Shown: in pieces, positions 23,214 to 25,228 of the stretch
How positions within the stretch are numbered: position 1 is the first letter of the stretch
Layout of the letters: each line of letters begins with the position of its first letter
Source of the DNA: an uncultured Methylotenera sp.
GTDB taxonomy: Bacteria; Pseudomonadota; Gammaproteobacteria; Burkholderiales; Methylophilaceae
NCBI GenBank assembly: GCA_937957775.1
Contig: CALFXV010000045.1
Coordinates: 1 to 25,228 of the forward strand
Direction of reading: 5' to 3'
DNA: 25,228 nucleotides
Position numbers and translations under genes: made by a program
Notes under the pieces: generated by a model
What the model saw: the letters and a program-made list of their open reading frames with translations, nothing else
What the model was told of the DNA's origin: nothing
Databases searched by the model: none

Positions 23214-23609
23214 ATGGCAACACGTCACGTGAAATTACTCATTTTAGGTTCTGGTCCTGCGGGCTACTCTGCGGCTGTATATGCAGCGCGCGCCAATCTT
23301 AAACCTGTGCTGATTACCGGCATCGCCCAGGGTGGCCAGCTCATGACAACGACCGAAGTAGACAACTGGCCGGTGGACGTATGGGAGAACTTGGCGGCCC
23401 CACCAGCGCCGGTCTACACCGCCTCCCAGGTCGAGCAAATCCGACGCGATGCCGTGCGCGATGCGCTGGGGGCTGCACTTGACGCAATGAAGGCTGAGGA
23501 AATCCCGCGCAATGAAGTCGAATCACCGCATGAGATCAACTACAACTATGGTGTATCTGACGCAATGAACGCTGTCCGCGCACTGATGCCGAAGGAGGAA
23601 GGCAAGTGA
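23214..23609 (+). pseudogene. trxB: trxB 5' fragment fused in frame to an unrelated phage-like tail
   Basis: The first 53 codons (23214-23372) are an ordinary thioredoxin reductase N-terminus: KLLILGSGPAGYSAAVYAAR with the FAD-binding GSGPAG (12-17), then GGQLMTTTEVDNWP. At this point normal TrxB goes on with a GxQGPELM-type segment, but here the frame continues with VDVWENLAAPPAPVYTASQ and about 60 more residues unlike any TrxB, ending in ALMPKEEGK. The CxxC redox site and NADPH domain are missing, so no reductase activity is expected. The tail is rich in Ala, Asp and Glu and resembles small phage proteins in composition; I do not recognise it. The ATG has a good AAAGG ribosome site. The fusion could come from insertion of a mobile element, deletion, or an assembly error. 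Confidence 0.8.
23370..23380. other. Host / phage-like junction inside trxB
   Basis: Homology to TrxB stops after codon 53 (Asn-Trp-Pro). Downstream genes are phage-like. The portal fragment has no TTA leucine codon in 362 codons and the peptidase gene has none either, whereas the neighbouring host genes use TTA and TTG heavily. No direct repeat, integrase or tRNA is visible at the border. The exact base cannot be fixed without the intact trxB of a relative. Confidence 0.7.
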
Positions 23610-23653
23610 GCCACGCACCAATCAAAGCCGATGCGTTAATGCGTCAGCCCTAA
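23606..23653 (+). CDS. Tiny ORF (15 codons) overlapping the trxB-fusion stop
   Basis: A GTG at 23606 overlaps the TGA of the fusion gene in a GTGA arrangement and opens a 15-codon frame (MSHAPIKADALMRQP, stop at 23651-23653). AAGGAGG lies just upstream, an excellent ribosome site at about seven to eight bases. Overlap and ribosome site suggest a phage-style coupled gene, but it is very short and may be a remnant of a longer gene cut by rearrangement. Confidence 0.3.
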   Translation: MSHAPIKADALMRQP

Positions 23654-23664
23654 AAGCTAATGCA

Positions 23665-23683
23665 AATCAGAATCATTCTCATT
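23665..23683. promoter_or_regulatory. Fur-box-like 19-bp dyad
   Basis: AATCAGAATCATTCTCATT is symmetric about a central C (9+1+9) with one mismatched pair and resembles the GATAATGATnATCATTATC iron-box pattern. It lies six bases before the ATG of the metallopeptidase-like gene, a position suitable for repression. A Fur box in a phage structural region is unexpected, so a chance match is possible. Confidence 0.35.
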
Positions 23684-23688
23684 CACAT

Positions 23689-24090
23689 ATGACTACACAC
23701 AAACTGAAGTGGCTTGATATGCAGATGACGGCGCAGCATCCATTGCTTACGCTATGTCTGACCGAGGAAGCGTTTAATGCGACGCTAAAGAAGATAAAGG
23801 CCCAGCATAGGCCGTGGATTCCTCACGATAGAGCTGATGCGTGCGTTCATGCCTTCGATACAAACAACGGATTGGCGACTGTTGTGTGTTTGAATGGCTG
23901 GAAAGACGAGGATGTAGAAACCGTGCTTGGCATTCTGGTGCATGAAGCAACGCACGTTTGGCAGGAGTACGCGGATTCCATTGGAGAGGAAAATCCCGGT
24001 AGAGAGCAAGAGGCCTACGCCATCCAAGGAATTTCCCAAGCGCTGTTTGTTGAGTTCATCAAACAAAGCGGCCTGAAGATGACCTATTGA
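23689..24090 (+). CDS. Phage-associated HExxH metallopeptidase-like protein
   Basis: A 133-residue protein without signal peptide or membrane helix. The zinc-protease motif HEATH (85-89) sits in GILVHEATHVWQEYADS, and Glu108 in REQEAYAIQG, about 20 residues later, is the likely third ligand, so the arrangement HExxH...E is complete. Small proteins of this kind occur beside phage head genes, including portal genes as here; their substrates are unknown to me. The ATG at 23689 lacks a ribosome site; internal ATGs at codons 11 and 13 are alternatives. A strong terminator follows directly. Codon use (no TTA leucine) is like the portal gene and unlike the host genes. Confidence 0.72.
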   Translation: MTTHKLKWLDMQMTAQHPLLTLCLTEEAFNATLKKIKAQHRPWIPHDRADACVHAFDTNNGLATVVCLNGWKDEDVETVLGILVHEATHVWQEYADSIGEENPGREQEAYAIQGISQALFVEFIKQSGLKMTY

Positions 24091-24110
24091 CTATTGACGC
24101 AAAGACATAT

Positions 24111-24141
24111 AATGGCCTGCAAATACCTGCGGGCCATTTTT
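24111..24141 (+). terminator. Rho-independent terminator between the peptidase-like and portal genes
   Basis: AATGGCC (24111-24117) pairs perfectly with GGCCATT (24132-24138), an inner GCA/TGC pair extends the stem past a one-base mismatch, the loop is AATACC-like, and T-rich bases follow. It starts about 20 bases past the peptidase stop and touches the portal ATG at 24143. Confidence 0.75.
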
Positions 24142-24142
24142 C

Positions 24143-25228
24143 ATGCGTCAAACCGAAAAGCTAAAGAAGATTCACGCCAAGGCCCTTGTCGGGTTTGATG
24201 CTGTTCAATCCGCATCGTATGACATGCGCAAGCTGTGCCTTACGGCGCGGCGCTTTGTCTCGATTCCCGGCGCTCAGTGGGAAGGCGCTCTACAGCAGCA
24301 GTTTGAAAACAAACCTAAGTTTGAGGTGAACAAGGTTTGGGGCAGCGTCCAGCGCATCTTCAGCGAGTATCGGAATAACCGCGTAACGGTTGATTTTCTG
24401 CCGTCTGACGGCTCGCCTGATGACAAGCTGGCCGATGTATGTGACGGCCTGTTTCGCGCTGACGTAGAGGCATCTGGTGGTCAGCAGGCTTTCGATAATG
24501 CGTTCGAGGAAGGCGTTTCTGGCGGCATCGGTGCTTGGCGTCTGTGCGCTGAGTATGAGGATGACGAGGACGAAGAGAACGACAAGCAACGGATCAGGTT
24601 TCATCCTATCTACGATGCCGATTCATCGGTTTACTTCGATCTAGACGCAAAGAAGCAAGACAAGAGCGATGCCCGCGAATGCTGGGTTATTACGTCAATG
24701 TCGCCTGATGCCTACGCGGAAGAATGGGGCGAAGATCCGGCCAGCTTTGATAAGACCATCTCCGGCGTGCAGTGGGACTGGTATTCGCCCGATGTGGTTT
24801 ACATCGCTGAATACTATGTGATGGAGCATGAGAAAGATGAGGTTGTTACGTTCGTTGGCCTTGATGGTCAAGAGCGTAAGGTTCTGGCGTCCGAGCTCGA
24901 GGAAGATGAAGAATCCGACGAAATCTCGCTTGCTCAAGAGCTGGCCTCTACCGGCTTCACTGAAACCAAGCGCAAGCCGATCAAGCGCAAGCGTTGCCAC
25001 AAGTACATCCTGAGCGGGTCTCGCATACTTGAGGATTGCGGCATCATCGCTGGCAATTGCATTCCAATCATCCCGTTCTATGCGAAGCGTTGGTTTATCG
25101 ACAACGTAGAGCGCTGTGCTGGGCATGTGCAAAACGCGATGGATGCGCAACGGCTGCTGAATATGCAGTTGTCAAAGCTTGCGGAGATTGCAGTAGAAAC
25201 AGCAGGGAGCACTACAAGTGTACTTAAA
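24143..25228 (+). CDS. P22-type phage portal protein, N-terminal part (runs off the window)
   Basis: An open frame of 362 codons without stop to the window end. Portal proteins form the dodecameric ring through which DNA enters and leaves the phage head. The sequence fits the P22-like portal family: FDAVQSASYDMRK (18-30), RRFVSIPGAQWEGAL (36-50), QFENKPKFEVNKVWGSVQRI (53-72), SEYRNNRVTVDFLP (74-87) and AFEEGVSGGIGAWRL (118-132), then an acidic stretch DDEDEEN (137-143). The family usually has about 600-750 residues, so about half is seen. The ATG at 24143 has no ribosome site because a terminator hairpin fills that space; Met28 (24224) would cut off conserved sequence. No terminase gene precedes it, which is unlike the common small terminase-large terminase-portal order. 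Confidence 0.85.
   Translation, partial: MRQTEKLKKIHAKALVGFDAVQSASYDMRKLCLTARRFVSIPGAQWEGALQQQFENKPKFEVNKVWGSVQRIFSEYRNNRVTVDFLPSDGSPDDKLADVCDGLFRADVEASGGQQAFDNAFEEGVSGGIGAWRLCAEYEDDEDEENDKQRIRFHPIYDADSSVYFDLDAKKQDKSDARECWVITSMSPDAYAEEWGEDPASFDKTISGVQWDWYSPDVVYIAEYYVMEHEKDEVVTFVGLDGQERKVLASELEEDEESDEISLAQELASTGFTETKRKPIKRKRCHKYILSGSRILEDCGIIAGNCIPIIPFYAKRWFIDNVERCAGHVQNAMDAQRLLNMQLSKLAEIAVETAGSTTSVLK

What the first reader, a model, noticed from the sequence alone, without database searches (positions are those of the whole stretch)
23214..25228. trxB is cut after 53 codons and runs in frame into phage-like DNA
The TrxB N-terminus is normal up to Asn-Trp-Pro, then switches to an unrelated in-frame tail, followed by a metallopeptidase-like gene and a P22-type portal gene. 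Thioredoxin reductase is usually important, so a real disruption would be striking: either a prophage uses trxB as target, or the cell has another TrxB. No integrase or att repeat is visible and the border lies next to head genes, which also fits an assembly chimera between a methylotroph contig and a phage contig.
Basis: partly seen in the sequence, partly recalled or inferred. Interest (0 to 1): 0.75.

Follow-up and report, generated by a model that had tools for sequence, protein, structure and literature searches.

The report
Bacterium-phage contig join inside trxB
The apparent cut of a thioredoxin reductase gene by phage DNA is most likely an assembly error that glued a methylotroph contig to a phage contig at eight residues the two proteins share, so it is probably not a real gene disruption.

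Summary
TrxB is normal for 53 codons (23214-23372); the frame then runs into other sequence, followed by a metallopeptidase-like gene and a P22-type portal gene. The "unrelated tail" is the 3' part of a small phage gene that lies just upstream of portal in a 39-kb phage contig, whose portal DNA is 91% identical to the window's. A protein of that phage family from another contig, P0002, has the same tail and, before it, TTEVDNWP, the last eight TrxB residues before the switch. So the join lies in a stretch that host and phage genes share (23349-23372), where a short-k-mer assembler can cross over. The fusion was found on one contig, of the window's length. Relatives keep trxB complete beside ftsK in 50 of 50 loci that hold it, of 80. 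No integrase, resolvase or rve domain was found in the phage relative, and no repeat of the border over 11 bp. Verdict: assembly chimera, 0.87. No reads were available; the phage DNA of the shared stretch was not seen, only its protein.

The parts
20711..23017 (-). ftsK, divergent neighbour of trxB; anchors the bacterial side
   Evidence: FtsK Pfam domains; best segment 84-86% identical to L018-L023, 79% to L024
23214..23372 (+). 5' part of trxB, codons 1-53
   Evidence: 53 residues identical to P0004; codon table against 14 relatives
23349..23372 (+). stretch coding TTEVDNWP, shared by TrxB and by the phage-family protein P0002; the join lies in it or at its edge
   Evidence: identity of the DNA on the phage side not seen
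23373..23609 (+). 3' part of a small phage gene whose relative lies directly upstream of portal in L001
   Evidence: residues 46-88 identical to P0002; 85% nt to L001 at 23390-23476 and 86% at 23569-23610; alignment A1
23689..24090 (+). phage metallopeptidase-like gene, absent between the two genes in L001
   Evidence: phrog_882; relatives at 48% and 46% in viral loci L098 and L013, which also hold portal genes
24143..25191 (+). 5' part of the P22-type portal gene
   Evidence: PF16510; 24084-25191 is 91.2% identical over 1108 bases to L001
25192..25228 (+). last 37 bases of the contig, leave the portal match; possible second switch
   Evidence: source not found

Best explanation
The window is one contig in which a Methylotenera-like chromosome segment was joined to a segment of a phage with a P22-type portal, related to a 39-kb viral contig. 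The join lies in the stretch coding TTEVDNWP, present both in host TrxB (residues 46-53) and in the variable N-terminal part of a small phage protein. If the DNA is the same too, it gives one shared word of about 24 bases, and a de Bruijn graph of small k has there a node with two ways in and two ways out. The assembler came in on the bacterial path and left on the phage path. The frame is kept because the shared residues are in frame in both genes. Shown: both halves, the shared residues in protein, a single occurrence of the fusion in the databases searched. Inferred: the DNA identity on the phage side, and the assembler's step.
For: Host homology ends at codon 53 against 14 trxB genes. The phage half is 91.2% identical to L001 over 1108 bases; L001 has no match to the trxB part of the window and goes on with phage genes. 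P0002 has TTEVDNWP plus the window's tail, 43 identical residues in a row, and no Pfam FAD domain in front. The fusion is 1 sequence on 1 contig of 25228 bases, the window's length. trxB is complete and divergent from ftsK in 50 of 50 loci that hold it, out of 80 ftsK loci. One strong TrxB match each in 174 of 187 genomes of the family. Tetranucleotides of the phage part are nearer the phage record (0.262) than the host part (0.411); all 9 host pieces sampled show the reverse, though these pieces are themselves part of the host profile. Hybrid TrxB pieces are common: of the 120 hits listed (of 4329), 35, the window and P0002 included, have 10 or more residues behind the TrxB match, and two others leave TrxB at codons 54-56 into different tails (P0023, P0119). 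Chance 24-base words between one 3-Mb host and one 40-kb phage are rare (0.0009), but about 180 are expected between 500 Mb and 50 Mb of random sequence (assumed sizes).
Against: No reads, so no depth or pairs. The phage DNA of the shared stretch was not seen, and P0002 rests on one 1267-base contig that could be a hybrid too. P0002 resembles TrxB beyond TTEVDNWP: 9 of 19 residues before it (reached by 2 of 200,000 shuffles), or 5 of 14 behind LKP, a motif of the phage family itself (440 of 200,000); so the phage stretch may be of trxB origin rather than chance. Codons 46-53 are not the most widely shared words among 50 trxB genes: best 21-mer rank 54 of 480. 24 bases is short for the larger k that assemblers end with (recalled). 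L001 codes for Erf-like and NinB-like recombination proteins.
Confidence: 0.87

Rival explanations
1. A prophage integrated into trxB by site-specific recombination, with the TTEVDNWP stretch (23349-23372) as att core: the window shows the left border, host-core-phage.
For: The order host, shared stretch, phage is what an att border looks like; P0002 suggests that some phage has the stretch. One other genome of the family, G186, has a contig whose trxB begins at the last base of codon 53.
Against: No tyrosine integrase, resolvase or rve domain in the L001 record, which may be incomplete; the residues are absent from L001, P0121, P0122 and P0123, so it is not a conserved att site; the border lies between a small gene and portal; a portal is found in 2 of 187 genomes of the family, only at 30-31% identity and on contigs other than that of trxB; an integration here would destroy what is usually the only close TrxB.
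Confidence: 0.05
2. A real, rare recombinant: the phage's own annealing proteins (Erf, NinB types) or a packaging error joined phage and host DNA at a short shared stretch, in cells or in particles.
For: L001 encodes Erf-like and NinB-like recombination proteins.
Against: Such joins are expected in few molecules and would rarely win an assembly over both parent paths (inference); no second occurrence found.
Confidence: 0.04
3. A library artefact: two DNA fragments were ligated or mis-amplified before sequencing, at a short shared stretch.
For: Single occurrence.
Against: A single ligated molecule would hardly carry a contig; a shared stretch at the join is expected for an amplification or assembly switch, not for ligation (inference).
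Confidence: 0.04

Closest known systems
Chimeric contigs of short-read metagenome assemblies (shared-k-mer nodes)
   Same: Two genomes in one contig, switch at a shared word; the sources describe graphs linked by shared k-mers giving chimeric contigs (passages of PMC7299287, sections 7 and 10; passages of PMC8171044)
   Different: The passages seen speak mainly of related species; here a bacterium and a phage share eight residues in frame
Phage contig IMGVR_UViG_3300050145_000009 (L001)
   Same: Portal 97% identical in protein, 91% in DNA; a relative of the same small gene upstream
   Different: Lacks the metallopeptidase-like gene between them and lacks TTEVDNWP
Loci of Methylotenera and kin with trxB divergent from ftsK (L018-L024)
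   Same: Same order; FtsK best segment 84-86% identical in L018-L023 and 79% in L024; trxB codons 1-53
   Different: trxB complete, 314-316 codons

Membership tests
Assembly chimera | each half continues past the border in separate genomes of its own kind | tested here: met
   Host loci and phage record L001
Assembly chimera | shared word at the switch | tested here: inconclusive
   Shared in protein (TTEVDNWP); phage DNA not found in the collections searched
Assembly chimera | join not seen in other assemblies | tested here: met
   1 member, 1 contig; no second one with P0002 as query (5 hits). Database clustered at 90% identity
Assembly chimera | no spanning reads or a depth step at the join | not testable with these tools
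   No reads held
Integrated prophage | integrase or other recombinase in the element | tested here: inconclusive
   0 of 1 record for each of PF00589, PF00239, PF00665, but tested on the relative L001, a linear record that may be incomplete; the window holds only 1.8 kb of phage
Integrated prophage | direct att repeats and a second border | tested here: inconclusive
   Longest repeat of the border elsewhere in the window is 11 bp; the contig ends before any second border
Integrated prophage | related phage found integrated in genomes of the host's family | tested here: not met
   2 of 187 genomes have a distant portal, 30-31%, on contigs other than that of trxB
Thioredoxin reductase | complete FAD and NADPH domains with CxxC (recalled) | tested here: not met
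   Only 53 N-terminal residues present; Pyr_redox_2 covers 7-53
P22-type portal protein | PF16510 over its cut-off | tested here: met
   304 bits, cut-off 26.1; gene cut at the contig end

The most novel reading that the evidence does not exclude
Some phages of this group carry a short trxB-like stretch in a variable gene and use it to recombine with, or integrate into, codons 46-53 of the host's single trxB, putting a phage gene under the trxB start and switching off thioredoxin reduction.
Probability: 0.05. Interest if true: 0.7.

Novelty: not a real feature. Interest (0 to 1): 0.12.

Why it matters
If taken at face value, the contig would suggest a prophage that disables thioredoxin reductase and would assign this phage to a Methylotenera-like host. 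Neither inference is safe. The case is an example of a chimeric join that keeps the reading frame because the shared residues are in frame in both genes, so an open frame across a border is no proof that the border is real.

Tried and rejected
Integration by an integrase: looked for recombinases in the relative's record and for repeats; none found. The phage as a resident of the host's family (family of G004, the genome of the Methylotenera locus L020; 187 genomes held): 2 of 187 with a distant portal, 1 of 187 with a weak match to the small protein (E 4.9e-4, 30%). A second close TrxB in the family: not seen at E 1e-60; of the 13 genomes without a match at that level, 9 have only a 36-39% relative and 4 none at E 1e-10. 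Interrupted trxB in other genomes of the family: 3 of 187 have a shortened match (G133, G158, G186), and in each it stops at a contig end, not in phage DNA. Codons 46-53 as the stretch most shared among trxB genes: not so. The source of the last 37 bases: no exact match to a 20-base word in viral contigs, no match with up to 3 mismatches to a 36-base word in 187 genomes, protein search of that end uninformative. DNA of P0002: not found in viral contigs, where only the L001 record came back, and no match in phage records. More phages with the small gene: P0123 as query found none. Papers: search listings; passages only of PMC7299287, PMC8171044 and PMC4886054 (the last names TrxB once, as a function). 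One search (trxB, prophage, integration site, thioredoxin reductase) gave 5 papers, 4 listed, none titled for a prophage in trxB; nothing wider was searched on this.

Full report
What is there. The ORF 23214-23609 begins as thioredoxin reductase and has 131 codons. Its first 53 residues equal those of a TrxB named Methylotenera sp. by its source, P0004. Compared codon by codon with trxB of 14 close relatives' loci (FtsK 72-86% identical in the best segment), identity is high up to Pro53 at 23370-23372 and then drops to background; only the Asp at 23376 still agrees in protein. Downstream lie a metallopeptidase-like gene (23689-24090: phrog_882; DUF6782 below its cut-off) and a P22-type portal gene (24143 to the end; PF16510, 304 bits).

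The bacterial side. The neighbour ftsK is 84-86% identical (best segment) to the loci L018-L023 and 79% to L024. Of 80 ftsK loci, the best of 588, 50 hold trxB within the stretch fetched, and in all 50 it is on the other strand from ftsK and open to its stop, 311-329 codons from the match start. Of 187 genomes of the family of G004 (the genome of locus L020), 174 have a TrxB match at E 1e-60 or better, one each. Three of these matches are shortened, and each stops at a contig end. Thirteen of 187 have no match at that level: 9 hold only a 36-39% relative and 4 nothing at E 1e-10. No trxB interrupted by phage DNA was seen. The window's own genome is not held.

The phage side. Window 24084-25191 is 91.2% identical, without a gap over 1108 bases, to L001, part of a 39,055-base viral contig. 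The end of the small ORF also matches L001, directly upstream of portal (23390-23476 at 85%, 23569-23610 at 86%). There the gene codes for a protein of a small family (P0121, P0122, P0123) with a variable N-terminus and a common YTASQVEQIRRDA part. So the tail of the fusion is the 3' part of a phage gene without its own start. In L001 the metallopeptidase-like gene between the two is missing; relatives of it are in the viral loci L098 and L013. L001 codes for terminase, portal, major head, adaptor and closure proteins, DNA ejection and transfer proteins, endolysin, and Erf-like and NinB-like proteins (30 ORFs examined of the 50 of at least 90 aa listed). No Pfam integrase, resolvase or rve domain was found in the record, which is linear and may be incomplete.

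The join. The decisive find is P0002, a 145-residue protein from another contig of 1267 bases. It is identical to the window over 43 residues, 46 to 88, which begin with TTEVDNWP and run through the switch into the phage tail. In front of that point it has no TrxB domain (no Pfam hit), though 9 of the 19 residues before it agree with TrxB. Behind residue 88 it differs from the window while staying in the phage family, so it is not a copy of this contig. The last eight TrxB residues before the switch are thus also residues of a phage-family protein. The join lies in or at the edge of 23349-23372, and the frame is kept because the shared residues are in frame in both genes. If the DNA is identical as well, this is a word of about 24 bases. 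For one 3-Mb host and one 40-kb phage such a word is rare by chance (0.0009), but between 500 Mb of bacterial and 50 Mb of phage sequence about 180 are expected, and about 11,000 of 21 bases (sizes assumed, random equal bases). The literature describes graphs linked by shared k-mers that give chimeric contigs (passages of PMC7299287, and of PMC8171044).

Single occurrence. The fusion protein stands for one sequence on one contig of 25,228 bases, which is the window's length; searching with P0002 gave five proteins and no second fusion. So the window is, by its length, a whole contig with the phage part at its right end. Hybrid TrxB pieces are ordinary in such data: among the 120 listed hits (of 4329; the window and P0002 included) have at least 10 residues behind the TrxB match, at switch points from 54 to 205; two, P0023 and P0119, leave at codons 54-56 into tails different from this one. 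This list was chosen by likeness to the query and may include frame shifts, so it is a background, not a rate.

Results against this reading. P0002 is a single short contig, and its DNA was not found in the collections I could search. It resembles TrxB beyond the eight residues: 9 of 19 before them (2 of 200,000 shuffles), or 5 of 14 if the family's own LKP and what stands before it are left out (440 of 200,000). The phage stretch may therefore come from a trxB, which would make a real recombination or an att core conceivable. One genome of another species, G186, only 70-75% identical to the window where they match, has a contig on which trxB begins at the last base of codon 53. Codons 46-53 are not the words most shared among 50 trxB genes (21-mer rank 54 of 480), so that coincidence is unexplained. 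No reads were available.

Composition. GC barely changes (0.498 host, 0.525 phage part, 0.559 L001), so GC is a poor test here. Tetranucleotide distance of the phage part is 0.262 to the L001 record and 0.411 to the host part; all 9 host pieces sampled show the opposite order, but they are themselves part of the host profile. Nothing longer than 11 bp of the border 23300-23449 recurs in the window, direct or inverted.

The right end. The last 37 bases leave the portal match. In the 19 relatives' rows printed (17 distinct records; L017 was not printed), 18 have KPI soon behind this point; the window has 11 residues where L001 has 6 and then ends on a Lys. This may be a second switch, or a variant; the source was not found.

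Verdict. Most likely an assembly chimera between a Methylotenera-like chromosome and a phage with a P22-type portal, not a disrupted trxB; probability 0.87. It gives no safe evidence that this phage infects that host.

Noticed in passing
window 25192-25228: The last 37 bases leave the 91% match to the phage portal gene and are lower in GC (0.405); possible second switch at the contig end.
   Followed up: partly
L104 (G186, contig C13), position 1969: On a contig of another genome of the family, trxB begins at the last base of codon 53, the same place as the window's switch.
   Followed up: partly
window about 23665-24083: A metallopeptidase-like cassette lies between the small gene and portal; it is absent there in L001, while L098 and L013 have relatives of it.
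   Followed up: partly
proteins P0023 and P0119: TrxB fragments on other short contigs that leave TrxB at codons 54-56 into different tails.
   Followed up: partly
L100:12806-13846 (phage record L001): The phage relative carries a phosphoadenosine phosphosulfate reductase-like gene.
   Followed up: no
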